Positions 6,317 through 53,483 of a stretch of DNA of 64,000 nucleotides are shown one piece after another. The notes below the pieces were generated by a model that did no database searches, had not been told where the DNA came from, and worked only from the letters and a program-made list of their open reading frames with translations. The stretch covers positions 930,001-994,000 of the forward strand of contig NW_026516203.1 in assembly GCF_025602895.1 (NCBI RefSeq). Reading direction: 5' to 3'. Positions within the stretch are counted from its first letter, which is position 1. The number at the start of each line of letters is the position of its first letter. The stretch is from Polychytrium aggregatum (taxonomy: Eukaryota; Chytridiomycota; Chytridiomycetes; Polychytriales). The position numbers and the translations under genes were made by a program.

Positions 6317-6774
6317 TGGTGCAGCAGCGTCTCGACGAGGCAGGAAGGGTTACTCTCTGGATGGCGATGTGATGGGTGTCTTCAACAAGCCCAAGCAGTC
6401 TATCAAGAGCCAGTGCGATGCCAGGCTTTGCAAGTGAGCGGTGGAACCGAGCGAACGAGGGCAAGACGCTCATGAATGAGAACGGCCCAGCAAAGGTAAG
6501 GAGAGGGGGCATGATTGGCGGCTTGAGGCGAGTTCCCTCCAAAACTTTTGCTCAGCCGAGAGCGTGATCTGGGAATGCTTGCCAAGAGCCGTTGCAGGCA
6601 ACGGACGCGCCCTTCTCAGAATCATTCAAACAGAATGTGGACAAGTTTATGGGGCATCGCAGAACTAATATTGAGCCGGCGAGACAGAGCCGAACGAGGA
6701 GCCACGAGGCCGTTCAGTTCAGCGGACTCTCGCTAGATCGTAATGCGACATGCGGCAGCTCACGCCCAGTCGTC
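6317..6774. other. Intergenic region between Byr4 start and the Fanzor transposon
   Basis: About 460 bases upstream of the Byr4 ATG, ending at the TA target of the transposon at 6775-6776. No gene was recognised. It probably holds the Byr4 promoter. Confidence 0.4.
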
Positions 6775-6776
6775 TA

Positions 6777-6874
6777 CACTTTATTCAGAAAAAAACGGGA
6801 CAATATAGCCGTTTCCATGAACATGTAGTATGTGCTGTGCTTGCGTCAAGCAAAGCCACAAGAAATAAAACAGA
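6777..6874 (-). ncRNA. Candidate omega-RNA (guide scaffold) region downstream of Fanzor
   Basis: In characterised Fanzor and TnpB loci the guide RNA scaffold is transcribed from the 3' end of the nuclease gene through the element end, with the guide taken from flanking DNA. Here the corresponding stretch lies between the Fanzor stop at 6875 and the terminal repeat at 6777-6802. A copy with only an added A in the poly-A run survives at 32900-32998 in a MITE that has lost nearly all coding sequence. That conservation fits a functional cis element or RNA but could also reflect recent duplication. The guide would come from bases just below 6775. This is inference from locus architecture; no structure was computed. 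Confidence 0.4.
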
Positions 6875-9247
6875 TCACTTTGGCAGCCTCCGAGTGAAGA
6901 CCACCGGTCGCTCTCCGGTCTCCACAATCGACCTGCACACTGTGATCATGTTGCGCGCCGCATTGACGTCGCGATTCCACACTGTCCGGCAGCTGGGATT
7001 CTTGCAGCTCCTGACAAAGTGGGAATTCGCAACACTGGGCGCATCGAGTCCTTCCAACCGAACTGGCTCCAGGCACTTGGAGCACACTTGCGAGGTGTTG
7101 AACTCGTTCGTCGAGGCCACCTTGACGCTTCCATGATGGTGATTGGGACGGCGTCGGTGGTGCTCGAATTGCTCAAAGTACCGAGCAAACCGCTGCCTCC
7201 GAGGGCTGGATGCATAGCCCTTGCCCTGTCGCCATGACGCATTGCCAAAGGCGATCACCACATCGGTCCGTATCGGGGCGTGCCTCAGGACGGCCTTGCA
7301 CATCTTGTCAACGGCCACTTGGCGCCTCTTGTGGCCCGTGAATCGATGGTGACGAGCCTTCTTGCCAAGGTGGAAGTCGAGCTGCACTCGCAGCTCCGGT
7401 CGCAGGACATGGGCGAGATGGATCTTGAAGGCCTCCGAGGACGACACCTTGGGCGAGGGGGTGGTCGACATCCAGGTCTCGATGCTGAGCTGCTTCTTCT
7501 TGGTATTGTGCCACTTAGTATCGGACCTGTGGCCACACATGTGCTGATAGTGACCATTCGAGAATGAGACCACCTCGTCTTGGTGGCCCGGTGCTTGGAT
7601 GACCGCCGTGAAGATGGAGCCGACTCCAGGATCGATGCCAATCCAAGTGGTCCTGTTGGGGTCTGGGTCGCCGATGTGGGCCTGGATACGCTGCTCGGCA
7701 GTCGGAGGAGGCTCGATGGTCTCGGTGCGATCGGTTCGAGGCAGAAACTTGACGAGACCGATGGTGCATCCAATGCCATCGGTGCTGATCTCGTAGTTGA
7801 ACAGCTTCTTGTTCACGTCCCGCTCTTGGAAGAGGGAACTACGCAGCTTGAAGCAACTGCGCCAGAGTCGATCCTGGTTGTTGACACCGTCCTCACCTTC
7901 TTCCTTGAGCATGTCCCAGGTGAGTCCAAGACGATGTTCGGTGTCAAGGAGTTCCCAGAGAGTGACCGTGTCAATCTTGACATACTTGGCCTTCGCAGTA
8001 CATAGAGGAACTATCGTGCACACGGCCGGAGGAGTGTCAAGAGTGAGCTGCTTGAGAGCCCACTTGATCCTGGCGGCCAGCTTGTTGATCTTGGACTTGG
8101 TGGTGCCGAGCTCCGACTTGGCCGTGGTGAACCTCTTGTCGTCGGAGGGAATGCCTTGGGTAGTGAGCTCGTCCAGCTTGGCCTGGCGCTGCAGCTCGGT
8201 GACTCGGAGGGCGGGCATGTCACAGTCGATCCACTTGTGGACATTGTCGACCATCTTGTCCCGGGCGAGGATTCCCACATGGTGTGAGAGGCGGTAGAGG
8301 GCCCGGAAGCGGTCCTGGTCGTTGCTGTACCGAAACTCGTCCAGGACGTGGCCAAAGTCTGGATAGAGGAACTCGAGATCGGCCTTGGGTGGAGTCTGCC
8401 CTGGTTTCTCGAAGAGCTCGAGACAAGCCTCGATGGCTTCGTGCTTATGCTTGTTGGCTGGGAAGACGGCAGCGCAGAAGCGGCGAAGGAGTCACCAGTA
8501 GGCCAGGTCGAGGTGGGTGGTGCAGTTGGTGGCATAGGCATTGACAGCCAGGGTGAGAAGCTGACTGTGAGCACCATCAGGCAGACGAGGGGCCGGAGGC
8601 AGGTCTGCGTGCCGAGTGGTCTGGTAGTCGCGAAAGGAAGCGACCAGATGCTCGTTGTATTTCTCATTGTCCCCGGTCGGCGAGAGGGCACCGTCCTGGA
8701 CGATCCTGAAGCATTGGCGGATGAAAGCAGGGGTGGACTTGGAGATGACGGGGACGGGAAGATCCTGCTCGATGCACCGGAGGATGTGCAGGTTGAGCAG
8801 CCTGGATGCCTCGAACTGGATCTGGGTCATGGCCTCGACGGTGGCCTGGATCTTGTCGCGGAGAGCGGGATTGAGACAACAGCCATCCATCGTCTGCTTG
8901 AAGCAGCTGAACTGAGGGGCGGATGACCTTCCATCCACGAGAGGGAGGACAGAACTCTTGAGGGGGTGATATTTTGGACACTTGCTAGTGTTGCAGCGTT
9001 CGTGATCGGTGCCATCGCACTGGCGACATCGCTTGCCGGTACTCGAGGAAGTAGATGGACCAGGCTCGGTGGGATCGACATCCATTGGATCTGCAGAAGC
9101 AGTGGTGGTGAGCGACGGAGCAACAGAGAAACAAGCATGCGTGGGGTCAGAATACGAACCAGAGACAGGCTCCGACTGTGACTTGGCTTTCTTGGGCCTG
9201 GGTGGCCGAGGCTGGCCATCACCGGTACCCTTACGCTTCGGAGGCAT
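6875..9247 (-). pseudogene. Fanzor RNA-guided nuclease ORF interrupted by one in-frame TGA
   Basis: A single frame runs from ATG at 9247 to the stop at 6875 (790 codons before the stop). It is broken only by TGA at 8492-8494, directly after a TGG codon; sense reading resumes with RRFCAAVFPANK. The N-terminus is basic (PPKRKGTG, RPPRPKKAK), a likely nuclear-localisation region, followed by a Cys/His cluster (CRQCDGTDHERC). The RuvC-like nuclease is complete: IGIDPGVGSIF carries the first Asp (about residue 543). VIAFGNASW stands where canonical RuvC-II Glu would be. NEFNTSQVCSKC supplies the alternative Glu described for Fanzors plus the first zinc knuckle. CKNPSC and NRDVNAARN give the second knuckle and last Asp. 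The alternative is a functional gene with stop read-through or a sequencing error at one base. Confidence 0.85.
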
Positions 9248-9487
9248 GGGGGCAGAGGATGCTGGATGCCTGCCAGTGGTACTGGTCAGAGCAGAGACTT
9301 TTTTTTATCGTACAATGGCGCGATGATCAGATCAAGGCGAGATGAGGGAAGAAAGCAGCAGGACGAAGGTGTGGCATTTATACCCGAGAGCAGGAGCCCG
9401 TCTGTGCGGGCTGGATGGGAAGTGACCCTGTTCAAAAATCGCCGAGAGGTTCAAGCCAGGGATGTGAACGCGAAAATGGCGGCGTGA

Positions 9488-9560
9488 TTGGGGAGCTCAA
9501 CCCCAAATTGGAGGAACTCAACCCCAAATCGGTGGGGACTCAACCCCAAAGAAGTTCTCG
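9488..9560. repeat. Three-copy ~25-bp tandem repeat at the transposase 3' end
   Basis: The unit CTCAACCCCAAA recurs three times on the plus strand with 12-14 bp spacers. The first copy, on the coding strand, encodes the FGVE of the transposase. The repeat marks the point where the transposase frame is lost. Confidence 0.8.
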
Positions 9561-10324
9561 ATGGGATTGAAGTCGGGCGAGGCAGGTGGGGTGAAGATCA
9601 CTGACCATCCTCGGCGCTCGATGCAGTCCAGGACAGCCATTGTCTTGTGCATGCTGACATTGTCCATCACAATCACAGAGTCGTCTGGGAAGCTCGCTCG
9701 CTCAAAGAACTCGACCATCGAGTGTGTCTTGAATGATGTGGGGATGTACATGCGATGCAGCACACCAGAGTGGTTGATGGCAAATGCAGCCGAGACAGAC
9801 TTGTGTTTCACGTGATTGCGCTGGCGAAGCGGAGCACCCCTCGGTGAGTATCCGTAAAGAGGGAAAATGGATTTCCTGATCCCCGTCTCATCGACAAAAA
9901 CGAATCGTCGTGGGTCGATGGAGCGGACCCGGTCCCTGAACTGTGCCACTCGCTCATCCAGTCGCTTGGACTTGTAGAGGTGTGTTGCTCTCTTGTGTGA
10001 GAGACCTGCTCGGTGGATGGCAGTGTGGCAGAGTGAGAGTGATACTTTCCTCTGGAGGATGGACTCGAGCTTGCATCGCAACACAGGACCAGTCTGGAAC
10101 GGGTCCTGTTCAATCAGGGTGCGAATGACTGGACATGCCTGCTCGAAGAAAGTGGATCTGCGAGCTGGGACCCGGGATGGGTCATCCAGCTTGCATCCTC
10201 GGTGCCATCGATGGATGGTGCTCTTGGATACACTGAATATGGAGGCAACCTTACGCAGGCTATGGATGAGGGCGTAGCATCGCAATGCGGCGGTGCGAAA
10301 GTCGGATGTGTGGCGAATGGTCAT
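9518..10324 (-). pseudogene. Tc1/mariner-IS630-type DDE transposase, C-terminally truncated
   Basis: The 268-residue ORF begins with helix-turn-helix segments (SVSKSTIHRWHRG). The catalytic core follows: first Asp in FVFVDETGI, second in VIVMDNVSMHK, and Glu in FNPIENFFG. There are 34 residues between the second Asp and the Glu, so it is DD34E, typical of Tc1/IS630 transposases. Reading stops soon after the Glu (GVESPPIWG then stop), where family members normally continue for tens of residues. The break coincides with three tandem copies of TTTGGGGTTGAG on the coding strand (9490-9560), which points to slippage or a repair scar. It lies upstream of Fanzor on the same strand. Confidence 0.88.
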
Positions 10325-10468
10325 GGCCAGCGCGCGATAACATTGGGTAACAAAATATTCGATGAATGGTCAAAAACCCGGGTGTCCCGTTTTTTATTGG
10401 ATTGCCTGTAACGGGCGCACGCCACCAATGAGATCGGTAATGCTCCCTCCTCGGCCCGAGAGGCTCGA

Positions 10469-13293: not shown

Positions 13294-15635
13294 TTAGATC
13301 AGGTCTGAGGGGGGAGAGAGAGGGCGGGAGGTGTGAGCGGGAGGAGGCCAGGCCAGTCGCAGCACTGCAACATCGCAAAACAAAGAGGCAATAGAGACGA
13401 GGCAGCTGGTCTCCTGCGGCATGTACGTACCGGCAATGTTGAGAGGCATCTCCTCAACCTGGGTGTTGTAGAACTCCTCAATGTCACGGAGCATGCGGAC
13501 GTCATCGGTGGTGACGAAGTTGATGGCAACACCCTTACGACCGAAACGACCACCACGGCCGATTCTGTGGATGTAGTTCTCGCGGCTGGCAGGGAGATCA
13601 TAGTTGATAACGAGGGAAACCTGCTGGACATCAATGCCACGGGCGAGCAGGTCGGTGGTGATGAGGACACGGGAGGATCCAGAGCGGAACTCCTTCATGA
13701 TGACCTCACGATCCTCCTGGCTCATTTCACCGTGCTGCGGGGGGAAACGAGAGCGAGGACATGTGGTCAGTGGCCAGTTGGGTATGCAGCGCACTCGGTT
13801 GCACGGGGCGCATCCGTGTCTGTCTCCTTGATTTTACATTTTCGCAACAGCAGCCAGTTCAGCTCCTCGGAGCATATACAGAGTACGATCTGCGCCGCCA
13901 ACAGCACAGGCAGTCAAGCACAGCAACTCACCAGGGCCGAGACAGTAAAGTCGTTGGCATGCAGCTTCTCGGTGAGCCAGTCGACCTTTCTGCGGGTGTT
14001 GCAGAAGATGACGGCCTGGGCAATGGTGACGGTCTCGTACAGATCGCAGAGGGTGGCAAGCTTCCACTCCTCCTTCTCGACAGAGACGTAGAACTGCTTG
14101 ATACCCTCGAGGGTGAGCTCGTCACGCTTGACAAGAATGCGGACGGGGTCGCGCATGAACTTCTTGGTGACCTCCAGGACGTCGGCGGGCATGGTGGCGG
14201 ACAGGAGGACGACCTGGGTCGAGGGGGGCAGGAGCTGGAAAATGTCGTAGATCTGGTCCTTGAAACCGCGGGACAGCATCTCATCGGCCTCGTCGAGGAC
14301 AAACATCTTGACGTCGTCAGCGCGGAAGTAGCCGCGGTTGAGCATGTCAAAGACACGGCCGGGGGTACCGACGACAATGTGGGCGCCGGCCTGGAGCTTG
14401 GCGGCATCGTCACGGACGTTGGTTCCACCGACACAGGCGTGGCACTCGGCGTTCATGTAGTCACCGAGGGCGAGGACGACCTTCTGGATCTGCTGGGCCA
14501 GCTCACGGGTGGGGGCAAGGATGAGGGCCTGGGTGGCCTTCTTGGTCATGTCCAGCTTCTGGAGGATGGAGATGGAGAAGGTGGCGGTCTTGCCGGTACC
14601 AGACTGAGCCTGGGCAATGACATCGTGGTCCTTGATGACGGGGAGGATGGCACGCTGCTGGATGGCAGAGGGCTTCTCGAAACTGTGGGGTGATTGAGGG
14701 AAGGGGTTCCGACAGCGAGCAGGCACGTTGTGAGCGGCAAGAAAACACAATTCGGTAGCAGAAAACAAACGCACAGCAGGGAGTGGGAGTATGGTGGCGT
14801 GCAGCGCATGGACCGAGACCATGCCATCATGCAGACGAAAGGCCAGTGCGTCCATGGTGTGGTTCGGCAGCGCCTGCAGCCCCTGCAACGGCAAGTCAAT
14901 CGACCACAGCAAGAAAAACGAGCAAACAAAAACCGTACCCGTAAGCGTAGATACCACGGAGAAGCTCCTCGCGGAGGTTCATGTCATCGAACTTGTCGAC
15001 AACCTCTTCCCAGTTGGACTGTTCGCAGGACCGGGGGGGTATGGGTGTAGGTGGAAGAGGTGACATTGACGAGACGATGGAAAAAAATGGTGGTGTGGGT
15101 CAGTGGGCGTCGATGGACACGGATCCTGGACAAACGAAGACAGCAGCCAGCGATCGCCAGAGGATGGCGAGGCATGGTGGGCGCCCAGGCCGAGACTGCC
15201 AGCAGCCCGATCGCATCGCCAAAGCCAGCGTGGGCTTTCGGACACCGGCATTGGATCGTCCAGACGAAAGCAGACTCAGTCCGGCCAGCAAAACCAGCAC
15301 GGCCTCGCCCATCTGGCAACGCAGCGGGAAGCCTGGCGCGCGAGGCGGCAGGAAGGGGCCACCCGCAGCGAGAGAGGCTTGCACACAACCAGAATGATAG
15401 AGCATGGGCACCATAGCCGATGGCGCCAGGATCAGATGCAGTACCTCAATCTCGCCCTCGGCGATGTCGTTGAAAGACTGACCTTCTTCGTTCCTGTTGG
15501 GAGGCAGAGGCAAGCCGCGAGGCTGATCAGAGACTCGCCCGACAGGGCGCACGCCGCATCGACCCCGGCCGCACCGAAGATCGTCGGGCACAGGCCTGCC
15601 CGCATCGCCAGCAGCTGCGATACCTACTTGCTCAT
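13294..15635 (-). CDS. TIF1: Translation initiation factor eIF4A, DEAD-box RNA helicase
   Basis: Six exons: 15628-15635 (ATG AGC AA only), 15445-15493, 14939-15018, 13932-14682, 13431-13734, 13294-13304. They sum to 1203 nt, 400 residues, the usual eIF4A length. Both RecA lobes are complete: Q motif [10 protein letters not shown], motif I AQSGTGKT, Ib [25 protein letters not shown], then [18 protein letters not shown] and the typical end MPLNIADLI. eIF4A unwinds mRNA 5' leaders as part of eIF4F in the cytoplasm. The tiny first and last coding exons were placed by phase. The GAGG donor at 13430 and the 11-nt last exon reproduce the conserved C-terminus. Confidence 0.96.
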
Positions 15636-20758: not shown

Positions 20759-21264
20759 CGTGCTGGGTGTTGAGCGGGCGAGAGGGATGTTGGCAATGCA
20801 ATGAGCCAGCGACGGTGGATATCACTATCATTTTATTCCGGCCCCCTCGTGGCTGCTCATCTCGGTCACCTGAAAGTCACGTTGTATGTGGCGCAGCAAA
20901 ATTGGAATCCGGCCATGGTCGGTTGACGGCATTTGGTATCGTCTTGAGCCGATTGACAGTGGTGGTGGGCAATTGGTGTGGAGGAATGATCAATTGGATC
21001 ATTGTTGGAAGCTCCACTCCGATTGCGGACAAGAACCACCACCATCTGAATCTCTCTGGTTGGAAACCTAGTCAAGCGCGGCTGTGTGTCAGCGAGATGA
21101 CATGATCGTTTGGCTATCAGGCAAGACTCACCTTGACAAGATGTCTTCCCACGACTGATTGAGCGAGCGATGCGTTTCTGGATCTGAATCAAGGACGCCA
21201 CTGCACAGTATCTCTGCCAGCCCAAAATGCGCTGGATTTGAGGAGATTCTTTCTTCCCCAAGGG
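20759..21264. other. Intergenic spacer before truncated Fanzor
   Basis: About 500 bases upstream of the CxxCxGxG gene. No ORF or terminal repeat of the adjacent Fanzor fragment was found here, so that fragment lacks its 5' end. Confidence 0.4.
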
Positions 21265-22076
21265 CAGAACCAGCCATCGTCGCTATTTTCTCGCCAGATG
21301 GCTCCCCTCAAGCGAAAGACACCAGCCAGGCGACCAAGTGGATCCAGAGCACCCAGAAGATCCTTGATCTGCAGGAATGGATGAGCACCACACCAAGTCC
21401 CAAGATCCCTGGGTTGGCTTCCTTCCTGCAATACATTCGCCATGTGTTCGATGGAGACATGCTGGACAAACAGCTGTACTTCAGCCTGACCCGGCGACGG
21501 CGGTTCAAGCGACTCGATCTCCACAGCAAGCGACAGCGCACCGTCCACGAGATGTACAAGCAAATCATCGACCAGGCACCACCGGAGACCGACATGGTGA
21601 TTGCCTTTGGGAATGCCTCGTGGAAACAGGGGAAGGGATATGCTTCCAGTCCCAGGAGACTCAGGTTTGCCAAGTACTTTGAGCAGTTCCACCACCACCA
21701 GAGACGCCCACCAGACCGATCCGTCTCCAAGATCCATTTGTGTTCGGTGAACGAGTTCAACACATCCCAGGTGTGCTCACATTGCCGGGAATTCAAGCGA
21801 CTCGAGTCACCCGAGTATCTTGATATCGAGAAACCACACTTTGTCCGGAGCTGTGCAAGCTGCCATACGCTGTGGGATCGAGACATCAATGCAGCCAGGA
21901 ATATGATCTCGGTATGCCAGTCGATCATCGCCACAGGAGATCGACCGGGTGTATTCAAGACCATGCTTCCCAAACCAACCAAAACCACTCGATTGCCAAC
22001 CAGGACGGGAAACAATGCCATGGCCTGCCCGCTGGGCCTACAAGTCAGTCAGCGGGCTTCAGAAGCCAGAAAGTGA
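21265..22076 (+). pseudogene. Fanzor C-terminal half, open frame, first catalytic Asp missing
   Basis: The frame is open from 21159 to the stop at 22076 without disruption. Shared blocks with the full copy are WMSTTPSPK, VIAFGNASWKQGKGYASSP, NEFNTSQVCSHC, CASCHTLWDRDINAARNM and TGDRPGVF. The alternative Glu, both zinc knuckles and the last Asp are kept. The region carrying IGIDPG, with the first Asp, is absent, so nuclease activity is not expected. The stop lies 3 bases before the terminal repeat, unlike the 98-base tail in the 6777 copy. An intact frame of this length in a dead fragment may be chance, recent truncation, or use as a partial protein or guide-RNA source. Confidence 0.75.
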
Positions 22077-22103
22077 CTGTCCCGTTTCTTTCTGGATAGA
22101 CTG
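21265..22103 (+). mobile_element. 5'-truncated Fanzor copy with intact Fanzor-side terminal repeat
   Basis: Homology to the Fanzor of the 6777 element starts within a few residues of where the first RuvC Asp should be and runs to the element end. The right end reads TGTCCCGTTTCTTTCTGG and closes at TA 22104-22105, matching the inner and outer parts of the terminal repeat at 6777. No transposase or transposase-side repeat is present. Sequence divergence from the 6777 copy shows it belongs to a different, older subfamily. Confidence 0.8.
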
Positions 22104-22105
22104 TA

Positions 22106-22272: not shown

Positions 22273-22749
22273 CGGCGAGAGGCTTCTCGCCTTCCCTCGG
22301 GGGTCTCTCGCCAGAGACTGCTCTTCTCGCCGACCGAGGTGGCTCCGAGAGCGCGTTTTTTCGTTCTCGCTCATTTTTTTAACAAGAATTTTTTTCATCG
22401 TGCATCAACGAGTCCTCGGGCTTGGACACGTGCACGTCACGTTGCCGGGAGCACCAGTCTGCGCCACATCCAGTCCAGCCCTCTCGTCTGCACTTCCACG
22501 CCATCGCAACTCTCCCTGCGGTGGCTCTGCTATCCGCGCGATGGATAACGCAGCTCTTGGCATGTATTCACCATACGTACAGCGAGTGCATCCTTCGCTC
22601 TCGCCGTTGCAGATCCGTGGGGTCTGTATAGATGTGCCCTCGTGTGGGGCTGCTCGCTCTCGGAGCTGTGCGTTCTGCATAGGTGTTGCTGCCTCCGTGG
22701 GTTCGAATTGTGCCACAGCCCAGGCCTTCAATAGCTTGATCCAGATGAT
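22106..22749. other. Intergenic region with a GT dinucleotide tract
   Basis: About 640 bases downstream of PGS1. A (GT)n tract of about 40 bp lies at 22232-22271. No gene is supported. Confidence 0.5.
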
Positions 22750-26103: not shown

Positions 26104-26899
26104 ATGAAGTTCAGTCTCGCTATCTCTGCTGTCGCGGTGCTCGGCCTTGTTGCACCTGCCATGGCAAAGTTCTGGGATGTCCCGGCCCTGCTCACTCCCG
26201 AGGGCGACATCACACCCAAGGCGCCCAACTATGTCGGTGAGTGCGCCCGCTCTTTGGCGAGGACAGGCGCAGGTTGACGAGGGCTCCGGGACCAATTATC
26301 CGTTGCCACCCCGGCCGCAGTGCTGTTTGTGGATGTGTACCTGGATACTGGCTACTGCGGTCCGTTGGGGCTTGTGCTTGCGACAAAGCACTCGACCCTT
26401 CCATCAGCTCTGCGCCATGGTCCAGGCTTCTAACCAGCATCGATCGGGCTCTTTCACAGAGAGCTCTCTTCCCCACGATGTCTACCTCGCGTACCTCGAC
26501 GGCTGCAAGGAGATCCCAACCCCAATCACAAACGAATCTGCCAACTTTGGCACGGCTATCTTTGAGCTGCTGCTGACCAACCTGACACTCTCCGTCTCGC
26601 TGAGCTTCAGCGGCGACCTCGGCAACATCACCAAGCTCCATCTGCACGGCCCAGCCAACGACTCCTCTACGGCACCACCCATCTATGATCTGCTCGAGTC
26701 CAAGCCGCGACTTGTCAGTCCCATCGCTGTCCAAGTCGCCCTCAACGAAACCACCTGGGACTACCTGGTGCGCGGACTCCTGTACATCAACATCCACAAC
26801 GATCTCCATCCTGACGGCGCCCTCCGTGGCCAGGTTGGATGCGTTTCCTCTTGCCGTGTGCCCCACGGCAGCAGTAGCGACGATATCCGGTGTAAGTAA
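26104..26899 (+). CDS. Secreted CHRD-domain protein
   Basis: Two exons fit: 26104-26236 and 26460-26899, 573 nt, 190 residues. A signal peptide is clear (MKFSLAISAVAVLGLVAPAMA). The rest is a CHRD domain: YLDGCKEIPTP, FGTAIFELLL, KLHLHGPAND, GLLYINIHNDLHPDGALRGQ. CHRD domains occur in chordin and in many secreted microbial proteins. They are beta-rich and of unclear biochemical function. A good donor (T|GTAAGT at 26893) lies inside the last codons, so the transcript may continue in further exons towards 27346, where an open stretch ends CCGSGCC. Confidence 0.78.
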
Positions 26900-32447: not shown

Positions 32448-32897
32448 AGAGAGCGACTCGCAGGTGGTATGAGCCTTTGCAGACGTGAGGGATTCAAGTA
32501 GCTCCGAAATCAACTGCGAGCTTGGAAGACGCCACGATATGCTGTCCGGGGTGCCCGACTGCAGTCCGGATTGGCTGGCTGCTCTCTGCCACTTGATTCC
32601 CGCCAAAGTCGATGGTCGGAACGGGATGAGGCGAAACTGGGTCGTTCGGGGATCCCAGGTCGCTTGTGTCTACATTATGGCGCCATATCTGCTCGGGCAT
32701 TGGCCCTACCAGGGCCCTATTGTGCTTATTCTGGGGAGTGATTGGGGCTCAATCAGGCCACATGCGTATCGTGTAGTACGCAGTGCTTTCCCAGAGTCAA
32801 TATGGACGGCGGGCGGCCTCAGTGGTTGGAAATGGCTTTGGGGAGGCCATATGATTGCGCTCCTTCACGACAACGTCTCGTCCGTTTTGGCACGCTG
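32448..32897. other. Intergenic region upstream of seven-helix paralog A
   Basis: About 450 bases between the paralog A start and the MITE. It probably holds the promoter of paralog A. No gene is seen. Confidence 0.4.
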
Positions 32898-32899
32898 TA

Positions 32900-33205
32900 C
32901 ACTTTATTCAGAAAAAAAACGGGACAATATAGCCGTTTCCATGAACATGTAGTATGTGCTGTGCTTGCGTCAAGCAAAGCCACAAGAAATAAAACAGATC
33001 ACTTTGGCAGCCTCCGAGTGAAGACCGCCGGTCGCTCTCCGATCTCCACAATCGGCCTGCATACTGTGACCATGTTGCGCGCCGCATTGACGTCGCGATT
33101 CCACACTGTCCGGCGAATGGTCATGGCCAGCGCGCAATAACATTGGGTAACAAAATATTCGATGAATGGTCAAAAACCCGGGTGTCCCGTTTTATTGGCA
33201 CGCTG
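32900..33205 (-). mobile_element. 306-bp MITE derived from the Fanzor transposon
   Basis: It joins the first about 217 bases of the 6777 element to its last about 95 bases. The left part differs at about six positions (about 97% identical). The internal deletion junction GTCCGG|CGAATGG falls on a GGC shared by both deletion ends. It is flanked by TA at 32898-32899 and 33206-33207. A 12-bp direct repeat TGGCACGCTGTA precedes the left end and also forms the right end, replacing the outer part of the right terminal repeat. It lies between the two seven-helix paralogs. Confidence 0.93.
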
Positions 33206-33462
33206 TAAATTGGGACATGTATCTATTCAAGAGTCTCAATGAAATCATTGATACACTCGGCTCCAGGATGTCCTGTTAAACTTTGCACCGAGATGTGCAT
33301 CTGACCAGCCACAGCGGTGTGATAGCCGGGATACAGACACTCATTCATACTACGCTCTGTCGCTCAGACCCACCACACACCGTCAGCTCGGCACTTGATG
33401 AGCTATGGATAACGACTCAACGCCGTGTAATCGACAAAGCGCCAGTTGACCTCTGGCTGCTG

Positions 33463-34906: not shown

Positions 34907-35612
34907 GATGATGGATGGTGATCACAAAAGCGAACCGGCAAAGATAACGGGATGGGATAGGGAGTGGGGTGATAAAGGCGACCAGGTCGTGCTAGATGAA
35001 ATCGGTGGGGTTGCGAAGGCGAGGGCCAAAAATGGCAGCTAAATACCCCTCATAACCAACCACAGGCGTCTCAGTCGCACTGGAGGATCAGACGAGACCA
35101 TATGTGTTGTCTCAAAGGCCCCAGAGTCACCAATTGGATCAGCTGGTGCATTGATGCAGACTTGTGCAATATGTGGACTCCATATGAACTGCAAACCGGA
35201 CATAGTACGAATGACGAATCCTTCGGCGTGGCAACGGCAACTATTGCAACATCGCTCTTTCAGCTGAGACTGAATGAAGGAGCAAGCAGACCTCATTCAC
35301 CAATCAGCATGTCCGCGGTGAGCAGTTGCAGGAGGATGCGACCGCCTGTCCTCCTTCGGACTGATCGATGTCTCCATCAAACAATGGACACGAGGCAGTT
35401 CATTGTTCATGGGTCATATCTCAGGTCCACTTTGCACATTTGACCGCTCAGCAGCACCATATGTTGCTCGATGGCAATGGATGACTTTCGGCGAGATATT
35501 TGATGCCGAGACCCTCGATGACGTCACCCGCTGCAATATGTTCGCCACGCACAATGGCCATACCTTATTCTCCCGAGTTCTCATCGAAACCATGGGATGC
35601 TATGGCTCGGCT
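34907..35612. other. Intergenic region upstream of seven-helix paralog B
   Basis: About 700 bases, including the paralog B promoter. Open frames in both strands show no recognisable protein features. Confidence 0.35.
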
Positions 35613-35953
35613 TGCAGGCGATCCAATAAAAAAACGGGACTCCCTGGTTATTGACCATGCTGGCTTCCAGACAGTAGCTTCTCTCGGCGAGCTGCAGCGT
35701 CTATTACGTATTTTCTGAAGCCGGGACGCAGTCCAATTTCACGCGAATGTGCGTGCAGTAGCAACCCGCGTCCATTTGCAATAAAGCTGATCTCCGAGCA
35801 AGGACCGCGGGTCGCTCTCCGGTCCACAATCGCCCTGCACCCAGTGATTAAGTTGCGCCCGCATGAATGTCATGATACCACGCGTTCATGGCCAGCCCGA
35901 TATTCGGTCGTTTATCACGAACCGGGTGTCCTGGTTTTAACTGCCACGACTGT
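35613..35953. mobile_element. Decayed MITE of the Fanzor transposon family
   Basis: The left end, CAGGCGATCCAATAAAAAAA then CGGGAC, is nearly the reverse complement of the transposase-side terminal repeat at 10408. The right end (ACCGGGTGTCCTGG near 35920) is a degraded version of the same repeat in the opposite sense. In between, GGTCGCTCTCCGG, CCACAATCG, GTTGCGC and CATGGCCAGC blocks occur in the order found in the MITE at 32900. Both flanking TAs are lost or shifted. This looks like an old, rearranged copy with two transposase-side ends. Confidence 0.65.
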
Positions 35954-41700: not shown

Positions 41701-44700
41701 CTCGCACAGCCTCTCCAGCAGATAGATGTTGACCTCGCGCGAAAGGCTCGAGTCGCTCTTGTAGAGAAGCTGGACCACCTTCTGGGAGAAGACCAGGGCG
41801 ATTTGATCGCGTTCGTATGACTGAACGACGATGTGCGGGATCTGTCGCAAGAGCAGGCGAATATCATGATGTGCGGGGAACGACCCCAGAGAGGCTGATG
41901 GCGTTTGCATGATGATTTTGCTGAGCTCGGCAATCATGGTCTGCGTATGCGGGGTGCAGCAGAGTGCGAGCGCCGAAGACAACAGGTGTTAGCAGATAGA
42001 AGATGGTGACTGCGAATCAAGCCTCACTCGTCGATTGGAGAGCGGGGGGTGCTCGGAGCGACCAGGATATGACATACCGAGAATCTCTCCTGGGCTTGCT
42101 GGGCATTGAGCGGGGCCACATCATCGTAAGGAGCGCTGGCCGTGTACGTATCCACGACAGGCACAGCACTGACGTGCTGCTGGGGACGCATGCTCGCCGG
42201 GCTCATGCCTTTGCCGGTGGCGGGGGGGATTGCGGCCGATCGAGCACAGCGGAAATAGTGGCGGAAGCAGAGACGCGCAGAGTGGATTAGAACGGGGTCA
42301 AAGTGGAGGGCAGGCTGACATATGTTCCACGCGACCAAGCGGCGTTCTAACATCGGTGTACGCCGGATGAGAGCGCCGACAGCTCATCCAAACACCTCCA
42401 AAATGGACATACCCTGAGCAGGCGCAAACGCGCGAGGAAGGGGCCGAGCGAACTCTTCGTACACGCGCATTTGCTGAGGGGTGAGACCGCCGAGCTTTGG
42501 TCGAAGCATGTCGGGCAGCGAGGCCAAGTATCGAGACGACGTATACACAGCCACATCATAGTAGGGCTGCGTCGAGCGCTGTGATACGGACAGGTCGAAA
42601 GTTGCAGCGGCATCAGCAAGATTGGGCCGTGATGCATCAGCACTGCTTCGGGCGGCGGGGGGGGGCGGCCTATGGTCGCAATAGGCTGGCCGAATCAAAG
42701 TCCACACATACCTCACGATGCTTCCGGCGGTTATGATACGCGGCGCTGAGCCCATCGTCGATGTCCGGGATGGCCTTCTCGGCTGCCGTTTTTTCAATGA
42801 CGGAGCATGCCAGATCCAAGTTGTCCGCGACCGTGACATAGATGGCCTGGTCGGGGACGCTTTGCTGTCGCCGCCAAGAGGATCGGTCGTGCGGCGATTA
42901 GCGGCGACCACGTGTGCTTTGCAACGCAGCCATCGGCAGCCACAGTGCAAGCGAATGATATGCACCATACCTCGGCAAAGCCAGCCTGGGCGAGAAGGAG
43001 ACGCATGTTCTGCATCATGCTCATTTTCAGCGGCTCGCGGCAGGTGACAGACGCAAGGCTCCCTGTGTGCCAAAAGGTTGAACCAACGCGCATTTAGCAG
43101 CCCGCTCGAGGTGCGAAGCTTATGCCAGCCCACTGACAAGGCGCAATATGCGGGCGCCGTGATACTGACCAGCAAGGTTCTGAACAATCATGTGACCGGC
43201 TTTGCGCATCTTATCCTCGTTCGGCTCAAAGGCAAAGTCCTTGACGACCAACTCGCGCGTCGCAATGCTTGCGATCGTGACGCTGCGCTCCACAACCGGC
43301 AGGATGATCTAGGATGCATACACAAATGATAGTCAGCCCCATGTAAAGCGACAATGCCAGTAGACAGGGGATGCGGCGGACTTGTGCGTGCGATCAAGAA
43401 GAGTAGTTACCTCGCGGATGGCCCGATCCATCGCAATATAAACGATGCGCTTGAGCGTCGCCTCGGGCAGGTTGAAGAAGCCGGCGCCATGATTGAGAGT
43501 AATGTAGGCAGCCAGATGTGGGAATCCACCCGCGCTCTCCTCCTCTTGAGAAACGTAAGCGAGAAGGCGTAATGAGACAATGTGCAGAGGGCGAGACAAC
43601 GATCAGGGGGGAGACGAGCCGACGACCGGCGGCAGAGTCCACCATCGAACACACTGCCGAAACAACAGCCGACAGGGCGTTGTAGGATGCTTGCACTCGT
43701 GTCCGTACCCGCGTTGCTCATCTGGGGTGCATCGGGGATGGCTGAGCCAGTGCTGGTGGGCGCCCGAGGGACGGCAGAATCGAGTGGAGCAGCACTTGCA
43801 CCGTTGGGCCGAGGCGCAGTGTATGGCATAGCCGCCTGGCCCGAGCGGATCGGGCGGCCCTCGAGAAGCGACGTGGGTGTGATTTCTGCACGAATGAAGC
43901 GGGGGGGGGCATTAGATACAACGATGGCGCTCTGTGCATGCACATCCATGGTGCACGAGGCGATACACAATGCCGGGACTGACCTTTGATATCCAACTTG
44001 ATGCCGAGCTTGTTGCACAGCACCTCGATCTCGAATTTGAGATTGAGTTTCAGGTCAGCAAAGTAATAAAGCTCCGAAAGAAGCTTCATGATCGCCATGA
44101 ACCACGGATTGGGCGGTCGGAAGACGGTGCTGTACATGACTTGCTCCAGAACTTTGCAGACAAACGGAATGACGACAATCAGGCGGTTGTGGTCGTATCC
44201 CTCGAGCAGAAGATCCTGTGAGCCGCCAAGGAATCGAAAAGGGAAGATAATTTGTCAGCGAGAAGCCAGAACTCGACAGGGCGCTGTGGGCTGATACCCC
44301 GACCCCAGCGCCGAGTGAGAAAGATGCTTATGAACATTGCCGGCCGTCTGAGACAGCCAGGGTCCACTAAAACGCAAAGCAGATAGGCACGATGCGACAG
44401 ACCTTGAAGGCAAGATGCTTGTGCTTGATGGGAATGTTCTTGGCCAGCGTGACGCCGCCGAGCCAGAATCCCAGGTTCTTGAGCAGGGTTCGCTCGGAGG
44501 AGGATGTGACGGTCTTCTCCGAGTTCAACAAGACACGGATGTTTGAATAGGTCTCCAGCAGAATGTGGCGGTCAAGTAGAGGACAGGCCAGATAGTCCAG
44601 GAAGCGGATGTAGAGCTTGTGGTTGTTGGGCTCAATCGAGGCGCGCTTCACAACGAGATAGTGGCTGAACCACCGAAAGTACCGCTCATGCAAATATTCA

Positions 44701-47700
44701 CGGATTTCGGTATACTTTTCTTCCATGTTGGACTCGACAATGTTGTTGACGATGAAGAGGATCTTGTCCTGGACGGCTTCGGGCGGAACCTCCGAGAACT
44801 GCTCGCTGTTGATGATCAGGGACTCGATCCGCAGGGCAGTGAACACCACCGGCTCCTCCGGTGGCTGATCGGCAGCGATGCCATTTGCAATGTCCTTGGG
44901 CAGCTCGTCCTTGGCTTTGGTGTCCATCAGCTGGCCAGTGAGATCCGTGATTCCACCGGGAACGACATTGGCAGGATTGGACAACGTGCTGATTCGCTGG
45001 ATCAGATCGGGATATCGCTCGTGCAGATGGGGGATTTGAACCAGCAGACCGCAGTACTGGGGCCACTCGGCCAGCCGACTCTCGAACTGCAGTAGCGCGT
45101 TCATTCCAAAGGTGAAGAGCTTGGAGTTGATGGGCTGCCGCAGGCCGTCAAGCACATAGCGCAAGGCAATGCCGAGGGCCATCGAGTTGACAATCTGGTG
45201 CCGGATCAGCGAGCCAAACAGGCAGCTGGTGATCAGCAGCGCCTTGTCGGGGTACTCGGCAAAGAACTTGTACTCGCCAAAGAGGTTTTGGATCATGCAC
45301 TTGAACACCTCCTGATCGCGCGGGTTCGCCGAGCCCTTCAGGCCCTGCAGCAGGTCGATTGTCTGCGGGATCGACATATCGCCCTTGAAAATGCGGTTGT
45401 AATAGGAGCTTGTCTCGTCCTCGACATCGGGGGAGAAAGTGCTGGCATCCAGAGAGCCGCCGGGGACAATCGACTCTTCGGGCGGTGCGGCAAGAGGCAC
45501 AATGCGGGGGTACAGCTGAGCGCCAAGACTGAACACGTTTCGGAATATCTCGGCGTTTTCAGGAGACATGGCACTCAGCGAGCTGAGGACCCGGAAGTAG
45601 GTCGTCACTACCTCGACCGAGAGAGGGACAGAGACGGGCGGATGGGTGCTGCCCTCCTGCCTCATGCTCTGGATCGTGAACTTTTCGTTGAGGAACTCCA
45701 GACAGGCGCGGACGAAGAGATCCCCGTCCTCACGGATGTGGTCGAGCAGCCATTTTTCAAAGTTGAGATAGTCCCGGCGAGAAGCGAGCGAGGCCAAATC
45801 CAGTGCGAACGGATAGGACTTTGTTTCCAAAACTTGCGACAGAGACTGCCAGAGACAAGCGAGGCCAGGATACACAGTGAATGCAGTATGTCAGTCTCTC
45901 GAATGAGCACCGGATTTATAGCCATCATACAACGACAGCAATCGCATGGGGTAGCAGAGCCGCGCGCTGGTGCCCGCCAAGGAAGTGTCGGGATCGGTGG
46001 GAGGCCTACCTTGGTCTCCTGGGTCACGTCCAGGATCCGGGACAAGAGTGCCGGGTCCTTCGAGTACAGAAGCAGCAACCCGTTGATGACCAGGGACTGC
46101 GACGCTTGCCAGACACGCGGCAGCACCGCCGCAGAATTCACATGTCCGGCCAGGAACATCAAGGCCAGGTTGGAGCTGAAATCCTTGGTCAGAGTTGTCC
46201 ATGGTGGCTGGGGCGAGATGAAGCAGTTGGGATGCGGGGCGAATGAGCTGATGACAGACGCTCAAAGAGCAGCGGGAGCAGCTGCACGAAGAGCGTGGGG
46301 TGTGGGGAAAAAAAGGCAATGCTTACAGGGATCTGGGAGAGAGCAATCAGGAGCACTTCGGGCGATTGGGTCGCGGCCTGGTCCAGAACCAGCTTGACTT
46401 GCTCTGATAGTCCATCTGCCTCCACAGCCGAGAGCCGGCAAAGGCTCTCAACGACATCCACGCTATTCCAGATCGAGTTGGTACTGAAGGGCAAAGCAAC
46501 GGGCAGGGCCTCAAAGACAATCGCTTTGCGCAGAGGGAGCTTATTCATGGTGACGAGAACAGGGTGGTTCTCAATGAGCTCTTTGAGGAAGCCAAACTGT
46601 GCCTGGGGATTCTCCCAGGGTTCCAGAAACGCTGCCAGAGGGAATTCGGAGGAATCCTGAGGAGGGACGTCACGAAACAGAGACAGCCGAGGCAGAAGAT
46701 GATGTTGGGTCAGCATTAACAGCCAAAGCACAAACAGGATGAACCACGCTTTGCGATCGAGCACGTCGCAGGCGAGGGAAGCGGCATGCCAAAGTCGCAA
46801 CACGGCAGTTTCTCTGACGATCATGTGTTGACGCAGGCTGTAGAGGCATCGCCGGTATACGCGACCTTACCCCAACGCCGGTTCTGATGGCATTCACAAT
46901 CAGGTTATATCCGCCTGGCGATACACTATCCAACTCGGGAGAATCAAGCGCACGGCCCAGCTTTATCCAGTCAATGTCGACACCCTGGATAAGGATCGGG
47001 ATGGCTTAGCAGAGGACATTCGCGGCTGTGCCAGATTTGCATGTTGCTGACAACACATCGTAGCGGGGAAATATGCTCGGAAGACATCCAAAGGGCAGGG
47101 TCGGGCTAGGTACTCACGAGAGAGACCGCGTTGGTAATGACGCGGCTGGCGTCCCATGTGGACGGGGCTTCGTCCGGCAGGTCAGCAATGATAGTCGATG
47201 CCAGCGAGAGATCGGATGAAAGCCCATCGACGGTTTGCGCCATCATTCTCAGGACGGATGCGATGTGCGATTCAGAAAAAGTTTCGCTGGCGTTCGAGGT
47301 GGATATTCCGGCGTGTTGGAAAACGGACTGGAGAGAGTCATCGGAATAGGTGGAGACATATCCCAAGTCCTGCAGGAGCTTGGATATGCTAACGTTCGCA
47401 TCGATTTCCGACCTAGATCGACACGGAAACCAACAGGATCAGAAGGGATCAGATGACTGCCGAGCGGATGCCGGAGAGGGGATATTGGAGAGCGGATGTT
47501 GGAGAGCAACAAAGCCTCAAGAAAGGCGCGGAAGAACCCCTCAGGGAGCGCTTTCGAACGTACGCCCAACAGCAACAGCGATAAAACAATGCAATCGACA
47601 TTCATCGTAGCATGGCGGTGCATCGAGGCGATACCGTGCTCGAGTCAAGGGCACATACATTTTGGATGCAGCTTCGATCAATGAAAATCGGTCAGAAGAG

Positions 47701-49871: not shown

Positions 49872-52602
49872 ATGCCGATAGCCACTCTGAGTAAAACCCT
49901 CCACTTTGGCGAGCTCACACCCGACGACCTCCTTGGGGTTCTGCCGGAATCCGACATCATCAGCGCCTTTGGGGTGAGTCTCGTTACTGTGTCGTCACCA
50001 CACCAGAGCCTCGGGATTGATCCGACGCCCGGCCGTCTTGCACATTTGTCTCGTTTCCCATTTATGGATTTGCACCTTTTTTTTTTACATTCGTCCACGA
50101 TGATACCAGTCAAACACGACTTTTGAATCTCGTCGTTGTGGATCATGTTCACATTTGGCCTTGTTGCTCTCCACATCTCCGCGATCAGCATGACTGTGCC
50201 ATGCAGCCCAGCTGCCGCAGCTGCCGCAACTGCCCACCGCGGTTTGTGGCATAGCACTGTCTCTTCACTCGCTGATCTGTATTGGCTGTCGCCATCTATT
50301 TCTCAGGGATCATGGGAGGTACCGCCATCAACATGCACGCTCGATCTCGGTCCCGAAGCGTCGTCATCACCGTCACCACTGTCGTCACAACCAAACCCAG
50401 CGTCGTCCTCACCGTCAATACCGCCGCCATGCGAGTCAACCCGGTCATCCCGTCCTTTAGTTCCCAAACCATCGCCAGCTCCTGGTCACAGCCCGTTAGC
50501 CCATACCACTCCCGATAATTCTCACACCGACTCTACTCCCAACGGCGTTCACCCAAAACCGGATCACCCGACCACGGAAACGACTGGCTCGATATCACAA
50601 CCCCCGGCCTCCTCAAAACGATCAACCTCTCCCTCCTGCTCTATGGCTGCACCTTCCTCGAATGCTGGCACCGAAATACCTTCTACCCAGGAAGCAACCG
50701 CTTCGTCTGGCCAAGGTGAGCACCGTCTGGAACCACTTGGTGCTGTCCGGTACTGCCAAGGGCGGTCCTCTGGACGACTACAACTCTAAGCAAGTGCGAC
50801 ATGGTCTGGAGCTGTAGCATATCAGCACTCGGTCCACAAGCACTAACCGATCCGTGTGCCCCTGCAGAACCGCAACCAGAGTCGATCATCCGGAATCCGC
50901 CTGCAGCATCCCCTGCCCCTGTTGTTTCCAAGCCTGCGCCCCCAAAGGTCTGGGCCGACCTCCTGCGATCCTCCAATGCTGGCCAGTCAGGCCAATCTGG
51001 TATCGTTTCGATCACAAACGGCATCGATAAGAGCCGGAATGGCTTGGGCAAGAAGGACGCTGGTAAGCAGCACTAGTCCGTTTCTGATAGCGCTCATGCT
51101 ACGACACTGTTGCCCCGCAAACTCATCCAACTGACTGCATCGGAGCTCATGTTCGTGCTCACTCTCCCCGTCTCCAGCCGGTCGCAAGCCCGTCAAGACC
51201 CTCACCATCCCTCGCGGCTTGATCAACAGCGGCAATACCTGCTGGTTCAATGCCATTCTGCATCCCCTCGTGCACTGCCCGCAGTTCAAGCAGATCTTGA
51301 AGCACCACGTCAAGTTGGTCAAGCCCTCGCCGGTCCCCGACTACCCGCTCCTCCACGCCCTCTCAGATTTCATGGCCAAATTCCCGACGTCGTCTGTGGC
51401 CGACGAGGCTAGCAAGGATGACCCCAGCTTGGCCGAAATCGGCGATGCCTTTGTTCCTGAGGATGTCTACAGCGCCTTGAAAACCAAGATTGAGTCGATG
51501 CGTGGCCACCAGGAAGATGCCGAGGAGTTCCTTGGGTTTATTCTCGACGGACTCCACGAGGAACTGGTGGCTCTGGGTGAGAAATCTGGGAAGCCCCTCG
51601 AAAGAGCCGAAAAGGATGCCTGGACCGAGGTCGGACCCAAGAACAAGCCCCAGACGGTCCGGAAAATCGGAAGTAGCGAGAGCGCCATCACGCAGCTCTT
51701 TGGCGGCAAGCTGAGATCCATCATCAGCTACCCCGGCGCAAAGAACAACCCGATTCTGGAGCGTTTCCACTCCCTCCAGCTGGAAATTTCGGGGCCCAAG
51801 ATCTTCCACCTGCACGACGCCCTCCGCAACCTCACCGCCTCCGAGATCCTGGACGAGTACGTGTCATCGACCAAGGGACGCAAGCTTGACGGGGTGACCA
51901 AGCGAATCCTGATCGACTCGACACCGCCCGTGCTCATTATCCACTTCAAGCGCTTCGTCTTTGACAACTGGACCCCCGTGAAGCTCTCAAAACATGTCTC
52001 GTATCCTCTCACGCTGAAGCTCACTCCAGGTAGGTTTTGCGCCGAGTCTCGGTCTCAGTCTTAGTCGAAAGCGATGGCGTATTGAGTGAGCAGCGGCCTG
52101 GGCGGCCTGGGCGTCGGCGATCGCGATATAAGACGATTTGAAGAATCTCGCCCGGTAGGACCGCGTGCCTCCTGAGATCGAGCAACGACTGACGCCAGCA
52201 CTGGCTCCACCTATTGCTGCCGGAATTACACCAGATATCTTGTCGCCCGGATGGTCAGAGGCCCTGCCCGAGTATCAGCTGTTTGCCGGTACGTTGTCCT
52301 CGCCCGCTCGTGCTCTGTCGTGTTGTGTCGTGCTCTGTCATGCTCTGCCGTCTGTGCAACTAGTCTGACAATACCGCCATCGCCCCATCACCCCATCGTG
52401 TCGCCCATCGTCCTCCTATGAAGTCATCTATCACCACGGCCAGTACACCAACGGAGGGCATTATACCTGTGACGTCATGCGCGAGTATGGCGACTGGCTG
52501 CGAATGGATGACGAGCTCGTCACGTTCATCACCGCGGACGAGGTCTGTGAAGAAAAGCCCGATCGACAACCGTACTTGCTGTTCTACCGATCAAGCAAAT
52601 AA
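49872..52602 (+). CDS. USP10/Ubp3-like ubiquitin carboxyl-terminal hydrolase
   Basis: Six exons: 49872-49973, 50307-50715, 50868-51062, 51178-52029, 52199-52288, 52424-52602; 1827 nt, 608 residues. The N-terminal 230 residues are Ser/Pro/Thr-rich, probably disordered. The USP fold starts at PRGLINSGNTCWFNAILHPL, with catalytic Cys at about residue 254. It continues with MRGHQEDAEEFLGFILDGL and VLIIHFKRFVFD, and closes with the His box YHHGQYTNGGHYTCDV and LRMDDELVTF. The sequence order is that of USP10 and yeast Ubp3. These deubiquitinases act in the cytoplasm in stress-granule, ER-Golgi and ribophagy control, Ubp3 together with the cofactor Bre5. Exon 5 begins at 52199 because the alternative acceptor upstream leaves an in-frame TAG. 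Confidence 0.9.
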
Positions 52603-52852
52603 GCCCATGCCCAAGCGTGCGCCGCACTTCCCCCCCCCCATTCTCTGGGCGAGATGTGTCAGTGGGCATGTCTCCACCCGCTCGCTCGCTCGCTCGCTCA
52701 GCCCTTTTCCTCGCAAACTGTCATCCCTATTTTTATCGACTCCTGTGCTTCTCTCGCCCGCATTTCCACCGCCGCTATTGCCGCCATTCCCCACCATAAG
52801 CTTCTCCCCTCGCTTCGTGCCCCCCCCCCAAACGTGAATATAATGCAGTTTA

Positions 52853-53259
52853 CAGCGTTTCCAAAATGAAATGGGACACCCCCGTTTTTAACCAGGACAG
52901 TTGTTTTTTCTGGAACCTGAATACACCCACCCACTCATCGCATTCATGGCCAAGCACAGCACCATCTTGATATCGAGAAACTACACTTTGTCCGGAGCTG
53001 TGCAAGCTGCCATACGCTGTGGGATCGAGACATCAATGCCTCACGGTGCATGATCTCGGTATGCCAGTCGATCATCGCCACAGGAGATCGACCGAGTGTA
53101 TTCAAGACTGTGCTCCCGAAACCAACCAAAACAAAGAGATTGCCAACGAAGACAGGAGTGCAATCACATGGCCTGTTCACCGGGGCCTACAAGTCAGTCA
53201 GCGGGGTTCAGACATCTGAAGCCAGGAAGTGACTGTCTCGTTTCTTTCTGGACCGACTG
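52853..53259 (+). mobile_element. 407-bp internally deleted Fanzor element
   Basis: TA at 52851-52852 and 53260-53261 flank it. The left end (CAGCGTTTCC, then GGGACACCCCCGTTTTTAAC) is the transposase-side terminal repeat. The right end (CTGTCTCGTTTCTTTCTGG) is the Fanzor-side repeat. The interior keeps only the last third of Fanzor: HFVRSCASCHTLWDRDIN, CQSIIATGDRPSVFKTVLPK and a stop at 53230-53232, with N-A-A-R-N decayed to NASRCM. It is closer to the 21265 copy than to the 6777 copy. It is the same structural type as the decayed relic at 18300. Confidence 0.85.
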
Positions 53260-53483
53260 TATCAGGCAACTCGACAGGTCCAGTCGGACTCTAGCAACAT
53301 CTCGCAGGTGGCGCCAACAAGAAAGCAGCAGCCCGAACCAGCGCTGCCAGGATAGATAGAGACGATTACGGATGCAGAAGTAGAGCTGGCGCTGCCAGCG
53401 ATCTATGTATTTTGGCTTGGTTGGCAGCACGATGGATTGGTCAGTGAGCGAGCACACCGGTGTGCACGGGTCGGTGGCTATGG

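What the first reader, a model, noticed from the sequence alone, without database searches (positions are those of the whole stretch)
6775..10410. Fanzor nuclease carried by a Tc1/mariner-type transposon with TA target duplication
One unit has imperfect 26-bp inverted ends, a DD34E transposase and a Fanzor ORF on the same strand, with noncoding DNA between Fanzor and the terminal repeat. This is a eukaryotic counterpart of IS605/IS607-TnpB layouts. Near-complete copies with both genes are useful for tracing how RNA-guided nucleases travel with unrelated transposases.
Basis: partly seen in the sequence, partly recalled or inferred. Interest (0 to 1): 0.9.

Follow-up and report, generated by a model that had tools for sequence, protein, structure and literature searches.

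The report
Fanzor-carrying mariner transposon with repair scars
A fungus-like genome holds hundreds of copies of a jumping gene that carries both its own mover enzyme and an RNA-guided DNA cutter, and small scars at the copies' ends suggest the cutter helps the element copy itself back into emptied sites.

Summary
Window 6777-10408, with TA on both sides, is one transposon: an IS630/Tc1-mariner DD34E transposase and a Fanzor on the same strand, and noncoding DNA between Fanzor and the 3' end. The host genome (64.7 Mb) has 29 near-full copies (window included) among 57 listed matches, 244 Fanzor-side ends (up to 3 mismatches), and an amplified ~310-bp derivative with the same ends. Two corrections: this copy's Fanzor has one in-frame stop, and its transposase lacks the C-terminus that a second subclass keeps. 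Fanzor is open for 790 codons in 22 of 29 copies read. Fanzor1 in Tc1/mariner elements is known since 2013, so this is a new member of a known kind. New here: (1) 60 of 62 unique insertions lie at 5'-TTA, one-sided, as expected of a nuclease target motif; (2) in 8 of 62 the transposase-side tip is overwritten, mostly in register, by the sequence following the element, in none the reverse; (3) copies show almost no linkage between sites, and 8 of 21 putative allelic sites carry different element forms. Best reading: Fanzor cuts empty sites beyond TTA and repair copies the element in, sometimes leaving a scar. This is inferred, not shown.

The parts
6775..6776 (.). TA target duplication, Fanzor side (3' end of the element)
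6777..6802 (-). 3' terminal inverted repeat (Fanzor side), ends ..AAAGTG; 59 of 62 unique copies have AAAGTG
6755..6774 (-). sequence just beyond the element; the guide segment if an omega-RNA is made as in SpuFz1
   Evidence: inference from layout and PMC10432273; flank read
6777..6874 (-). conserved noncoding 3' region, candidate omega-RNA scaffold (diversity 0.0225 vs 0.0484 between the genes and 0.083 at fourfold sites; fold z -1.8 and -2.0)
6875..9247 (-). Fanzor ORF, 790 codons, DPG + repositioned Glu + C4 zinc finger; this copy has one in-frame stop at 8492-8494
   Evidence: 22 of 29 copies read are open for 790 codons
9248..9517 (-). region between transposase and Fanzor; three ~21-nt tandem units lie at 9492-9555, where the transposase C-terminus is lost in this subclass
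9518..10324 (-). DD34E IS630/Tc1-mariner transposase, 268 codons, C-terminus lost (subclass A)
10383..10408 (-). 5' terminal inverted repeat (transposase side), tip CAGGCAATCC; its outer 12 nt are the most variable of the stretches measured
10409..10411 (-). 5'-TTA at the transposase end (TA duplication plus conserved T), predicted Fanzor target motif
32898..33207 (-). ~310-bp deletion derivative (ghost element) with the same two ends; its 5' tip (33197-33207) repeats the flank at 32889-32899 = scar
21159..22105 (+). C-terminal part of a related Fanzor family (about half identical), ending in a related inverted repeat + TA
52851..53261 (+). short two-ended element of the related Fanzor family, at TTA

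Best explanation
It is a cut-and-paste Tc1/mariner (IS630-type) transposon with a Fanzor1-type RNA-guided nuclease. Shown by sequence: two genes, two ends, TA duplication, many dispersed copies, both genes under purifying selection, an amplified short derivative keeping both ends. Inferred mechanism: the transposase inserts at TA; an omega-RNA from the 3' end uses the sequence beyond the element as its guide; Fanzor recognises TTA + guide, i.e. the empty site, and cuts inside the sequence that follows TA. The broken end then carries 5'flank-TTA plus some following bases, and is repaired from an occupied copy of the site, restoring or copying in the element. When the following bases are not fully trimmed they replace the element's first bases in register, which is the scar seen. 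Short derivatives are moved and retained in trans. I put the unit's identity at about 97% and the homing step at about 50%.
For: Copies with both genes and both ends, TA on both sides, a paralogous empty site for L010 in 3 held repeats at about 93% with gaps in a T run. Scars: 8 of 62 tips match their own 3' flank, 0 of 20,000 permutations reach it, none of 62 3' tips matches its 5' flank; 6 of the 8 keep the canonical length. dN/dS 0.31 Fanzor, 0.23 transposase over 28 copies. 3' noncoding region constrained. Precedent: SpuFz1 elements have a conserved CA before their 5' repeat and an assayed CATA motif, ghost loci, and cuts about 16-21 nt into the target (PMC10432273, passages).
Against: No RNA, protein or cutting data. 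In the five site pairs where both alleles of a scar (L020, L038, L044) or possible-scar (L021, L056) site were seen, both show the same tip, so the scars are older than the allele split and cannot be timed against insertion. L050, a weak scar, has A, not T, before TA. 12 of 20 non-canonical tips do not clearly match their own flank. The transposase itself might prefer TTA. The candidate omega-RNA fold is only modestly better than shuffles (7 and 6 of 200 fold as well), and the two related-family 3' ends fold no better than shuffles (52 and 53 of 200); no covariation test was made.
Confidence: 0.52

Rival explanations
1. Aberrant insertion: the transposase sometimes joins a 5'-truncated element with a wider staggered cut, so the scar is simply a longer target duplication made at the moment of insertion.
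For: Scars are shared by both alleles in the pairs seen. Junctions show 2-5 nt shared with the canonical tip (judged by eye).
Against: 6 of 8 scars replace exactly as many bases as they add, in register with TA; a wide stagger gives no reason for equal lengths. It should hit both ends, but 8 are at the 5' tip and 0 at the 3' tip of 62.
Confidence: 0.27
2. The one-sided TTA is a target preference of the transposase, and Fanzor is a passenger with another or no role.
For: TA choice is a transposase property in this superfamily (recalled); Fanzor dN/dS is no lower than that of the transposase.
Against: The preference is one-sided and near absolute, while this superfamily acts with paired ends at a symmetrical TA (recalled). 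SpuFz1 has the same one-sided feature and there it agrees with the assayed nuclease motif (PMC10432273, passages). Fanzor is open in 22 of 29 copies.
Confidence: 0.25
3. The near-absence of linkage between copies and the different forms at putative allelic sites are assembly or polishing errors in a repeat-rich genome.
For: Linkage decays on a scale (25-50 bp) like short-read k-mers; contig pairs may be imperfect haplotigs; differences between L016 and L017 are patches of bases mostly found in other copies.
Against: L016 and L017 share almost all of their mosaic: 16 differences in 3,635 positions of the element, against 4.1% mean divergence between copies; random scrambling would not be shared. 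TTA and scars sit at unique flanks and do not depend on this.
Confidence: 0.3
4. Fanzor acts on other sites, or as a regulatory or defence-like nuclease, not in element retention.
For: Some copies sit next to ends of related elements (L009, L019, L025), so their guides would match transposon ends rather than a unique site.
Against: The other unique sites have differing flanks; the motif side and the scar side both fit cutting of the element's own empty site.
Confidence: 0.1

Closest known systems
Fanzor1 in Tc1/mariner elements (PUl-1, PGv-1, HMa-1; PMC3627910, passages seen)
   Same: Transposase plus Fanzor1 within one pair of inverted ends (PGv-1, PUl-1), TA duplication
   Different: PGv-1, HMa-1 and two relatives are described there as single-copy; here hundreds of ends, many open Fanzor frames and short derivatives lie in one eukaryote genome, with one-sided TTA and tip scars
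Spu-1 / SpuFz1 of Spizellomyces punctatus (PMC3627910, PMC10432273, passages seen)
   Same: TA duplication, conserved bases before the 5' end, ghost elements, conserved 3' noncoding end; SpuFz1 (8gkh) is the best PDB profile match (E 0.0025)
   Different: Its authors found no transposase within Spu-1 ends; here it is present. TTA-type motif predicted instead of CATA; Fanzor 790 aa instead of 633
IS200/IS605 and IS607 TnpB elements (PMC10711439 passages; PMC11870625 abstract and passages)
   Same: Transposase + nuclease + 3' end RNA layout; target motif on one side, guide on the other; copy-back by homologous repair proposed
   Different: DDE transposase with TA duplication instead of HUH or serine recombinase; eukaryote
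Homing endonuclease elements (recalled)
   Same: Cut of the empty allele followed by copying from the occupied one would be the same logic
   Different: RNA-guided and re-aimed at each insertion

Membership tests
Fanzor (Fanzor1) | DPG at RuvC-I and glutamate six residues before the zinc finger | tested here: met
   D539-P-G; E715 with six residues to C722 in L003; criteria from PMC10711439 passages
Fanzor (Fanzor1) | D-X(125-275)-[TS][TS]xx-C4 zinc finger-X(5,50)-RD (PMC3627910) | tested here: met
   the second cysteine pair is CxxxxC in this family, CxxC in the related one
Fanzor (Fanzor1) | closer to Fanzor1 than Fanzor2 by tree | tested here: inconclusive
   Only two chains pass E 0.1 with the profile, both Fanzor1 (8gkh 0.0025, 9cer 0.093); with one sequence the best hit is LaTranC at 0.17, 8gkh at 0.3; no tree made
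Fanzor (Fanzor1) | RNA-guided DNA cutting | not testable with these tools
   no assay
Fanzor (Fanzor1) | 3' end transcribed as omega-RNA with flank as guide | not testable with these tools
   only indirect: conserved 3' region, weak fold signal
Tc1/mariner (IS630) | DDE transposase with DD34-type spacing | tested here: met
Tc1/mariner (IS630) | terminal inverted repeats | tested here: met
   imperfect
Tc1/mariner (IS630) | TA duplication with empty-site evidence | tested here: met
   (one insertion, three paralogous empty sites)
Nuclease-driven homing | recipient site cut on one side and repaired from an occupied copy | tested here: inconclusive
   one-sided scars in 8 of 62 fit it; timing relative to insertion unresolved

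The most novel reading that the evidence does not exclude
Fanzor drives the element as a eukaryotic, RNA-reprogrammed homing system: empty sites are cut beyond TTA, repair copies the element in and leaves in-register 5' scars as a fossil record, and repair between copies is so frequent that the family behaves like a freely recombining population in which the insertion sites stay put while full, short and intermediate forms replace one another.
Probability: 0.3. Interest if true: 0.87.

Novelty: new member of a known kind. Interest (0 to 1): 0.64.

Why it matters
What the endonuclease activity of Fanzors does in nature is stated to be unknown (PMC10432273, passage). This family puts transposase, Fanzor, ghost derivatives, a predicted target motif and apparent repair scars in one genome, so the copy-back model can be tested by sequence alone in other genomes and by a simple cutting assay.

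Tried and rejected
Structure prediction from two window sequences gave mean pLDDT 38.7 and was not used; no fold search was run. Viral contigs held no relative of Fanzor or transposase by the tool's test. Rfam and tRNA scans of the window found nothing. The transposase has no PDB sequence match at E 0.1. The first empty-site query was swamped by a repeat beside L010; the second (40 of 59 candidates scored) showed no empty allele apart from an 84% match in the tandem-repeat flank of L022. Distance correlations between segments over 28 copies were weak or absent (transposase-Fanzor N part r 0.35, 11 of 2,000 permutations as high; Fanzor N-C parts r -0.11; transposase-Fanzor C part r -0.02), so gene-tree congruence was judged uninformative and no tree was built. 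L029's 4-base match was dropped from the scars because its first four tip bases are canonical; L021 (2 bases), L056 (3) and L046 (1) were not counted. L028 was left out of end counts (5' end not found); seven copies at duplicate or allelic sites were left out of the unique-site counts. Six of the ten extra sites were already known to have canonical TTA tips, so that sample is biased.

Full report
What is in the window. Positions 6777-10408 form one unit, coded on the minus strand: 5' end at 10408, transposase 9518-10324, Fanzor 6875-9247, noncoding 3' region, 3' end at 6777, with TA outside both ends. The transposase matches DDE_3 and IS630 and has D145, D221 and E256 with 34 residues between the last two. 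The Fanzor matches the TNB zinc domain; the copy L003 carries DPG and a glutamate six residues before the zinc finger, and a profile of nine sequences finds SpuFz1 (8gkh, E 0.0025) and, weakly, Guillardia theta Fanzor1 (E 0.093) among solved structures. In the window copy one in-frame stop splits the Fanzor ORF, and the transposase ends early.

Copies. In the host genome, 29 of 57 listed matches, the window included, cover at least 3,574 of 3,632 bases (40 of 1,255 candidates scored, so these are lower bounds). The Fanzor-side end occurs 244 times with up to 3 mismatches and 0 times in the reversed control; the transposase-side end, pattern beginning TTA, 320 times with up to 2 mismatches, control 0. 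The transposase protein search lists 143 matches (143 of 528 candidates scored) and shows two subclasses: A, like the window, losing the C-terminus, and B, continuing to about 310 residues in the one copy read there. The Fanzor search lists 91 matches (91 of 1,309 scored), 76 of them without a stop in the matched part. In 29 copies read here, Fanzor is open for 790 codons in 22 (one of these starts with ATA) and the transposase frame reaches at least 260 codons in 19. A ~310-bp derivative with the same two ends gives 41 matches (40 of 1,101 candidates scored); all 30 copies read have their junction at the same place, so it probably has one origin and was moved in trans. The window's copy keeps about 216 bp of the Fanzor side and 89 bp of the transposase side.

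Borders and empty sites. Of 59 copies with both ends located, 52 sites are unique. TA follows the Fanzor-side end in 51 of 52; L005 has TG. The joined flanks of L010 align without the element to three held repeat copies at about 93%, one of them window 22321-22402: a paralogous empty site with one TA.

One-sided TTA. T precedes TA on the transposase side in 50 of 52 sites, and in 60 of 62 with ten more, six of which were already known to have TTA. In the window 13.3% of TA sites, both strands, have T before them. The exact 32-base tip has a non-T at that position at 6 places genome-wide, against 100 listed with T in a capped list. After TA on the other side there is no clear preference. In Spizellomyces the equivalent conserved bases (CA before the 5' repeat) agree with the assayed nuclease motif CATA (PMC10432273, passages). 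I therefore predict (N)TTA as this Fanzor's motif; that is inference.

Scars. The tip after TA is canonically CAGGCAATCC. In 20 of 62 sites it differs within its first eight bases, and in 8 of these (L019, L020, L031, L038, L044, L050, C68, C24) it matches the first 4 to 11 bases of the same copy's own 3' flank. No permutation of 20,000 reached this, either for the summed match length or for the number of scars. Six scars keep the canonical length; L031 and L038 are one base shorter. By eye, the junctions fall on 2-5 bases shared with the canonical tip. No 3' tip matches its 5' flank in 62. L050 is the weakest case. The outer 12 nt of the 5' end have a diversity of 0.108, against 0.0225 for the 98-nt 3' noncoding region. 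A break that leaves 5'flank-TTA plus bases of the 3' flank would be needed to write these bases in register into the tip; a Fanzor cut of an empty site would leave that. A transposase excision break would not, because its ends carry the element's own bases (recalled knowledge of the superfamily). Where two alleles of a scar (L020, L038, L044) or possible-scar (L021, L056) site were seen, both had the same tip, so the time of scarring is not resolved.

Selection and recombination. Over 28 copies dN/dS is 0.23 for the transposase (262 codons) and 0.31 for Fanzor; for changes private to one copy it is 0.46 in both. The noncoding 3' region is less diverse than the region between the genes (difference -0.026, 95% interval -0.044 to -0.009) and than fourfold sites. 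Its predicted fold is modestly better than shuffles; the 3' ends of two related-family copies fold no better than shuffles. Among the 28 copies linkage falls to the shuffled level beyond about 50 bp, also for transversions alone; mean pairwise divergence is 4.1%. The putative allelic copies L016 and L017 differ at 2 of 2,994 flank positions but 16 of 3,635 element positions; L017's base occurs in other copies at 16 of 16, L016's at 14 of 16. This looks like patchy conversion from other copies. Polishing errors could add to it but would not explain the shared mosaic.

Same site, different element. By flank matches and end coordinates I found 21 site pairs on different contigs; 8 carry different forms. 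L004/L060 (full against short; flanks 99.4-99.6% identical, read in full), L059/C21 (short against full; both ends read) and L045/C168 (short against about 1.1 kb) have both flanks checked. L049/C13, L044/C223, L056/C312, L021/C9 and L005/C119 have only the 5' flank checked, and L005/C119 is the weakest: one more difference than the self match, and another base before TA. The other 13 agree in form as far as seen; for L018, L020, L023 and L009 the second copy is known only from its 5' flank and a gene match. A third contig (C24) with the L049 flank was not classed. I treat the contig pairs as alleles, which is likely but unproven.

Comparison with the literature. Fanzor1 in Mariner elements was described in 2013 (PMC3627910, passages). 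PMC10432273 (passages) describes SpuFz1, its ghost loci and cut positions, and states that no transposase was found within Spu-1 ends and that the role is unknown. [quoted passage not shown] PMC11870625 (abstract and passages) shows a TnpB gene drive in bacterial plasmids. My searches listed no paper whose title or shown start of abstract reports homing by Fanzor in a eukaryote or such tip scars; one search listed 40 of 82 Fanzor papers, most papers were seen only as listings, and the library is incomplete.

Verdict. As a kind it is known. The one-sided motif, the one-sided in-register scars and the turnover of forms at fixed sites are what deserve follow-up, because they turn the question of what Fanzor does into a testable one.

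Noticed in passing
window 21159-22105, 52851-53261; genome: A related, more diverged Fanzor family: 150 listed matches (150 of 1,665 candidates scored), some with ~900-codon frames and many with frames of about 290-316 codons holding only the C-terminal part, often without stops.
   Followed up: partly
L009, L019, L025 (3' flanks): Three of 52 unique insertions appear to abut the end of another related Fanzor element, so their guides would match transposon ends.
   Followed up: partly
L045 site on C168:195435-196546; L021 site on C9:65142-66253: A ~1.1-kb intermediate form seems to exist at two sites; its sequence was not read.
   Followed up: no
C409, C323, C71, C57 copies: Four copies share a ~127-bp deletion inside the transposase, with 8-bp overlaps of the aligned pieces.
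   Followed up: no
window 35612-35945: A decayed short piece with remnants of both ends of the family.
   Followed up: no
window 44370-45875(-), 51219-52061(+), 13917-14957(-), 26147-26896(+): Host genes: CCR4-NOT subunit 1, ubiquitin hydrolase, DEAD-box helicase, CHRD domain; eukaryotic, probably a zoosporic fungus (guess from memory).
   Followed up: partly
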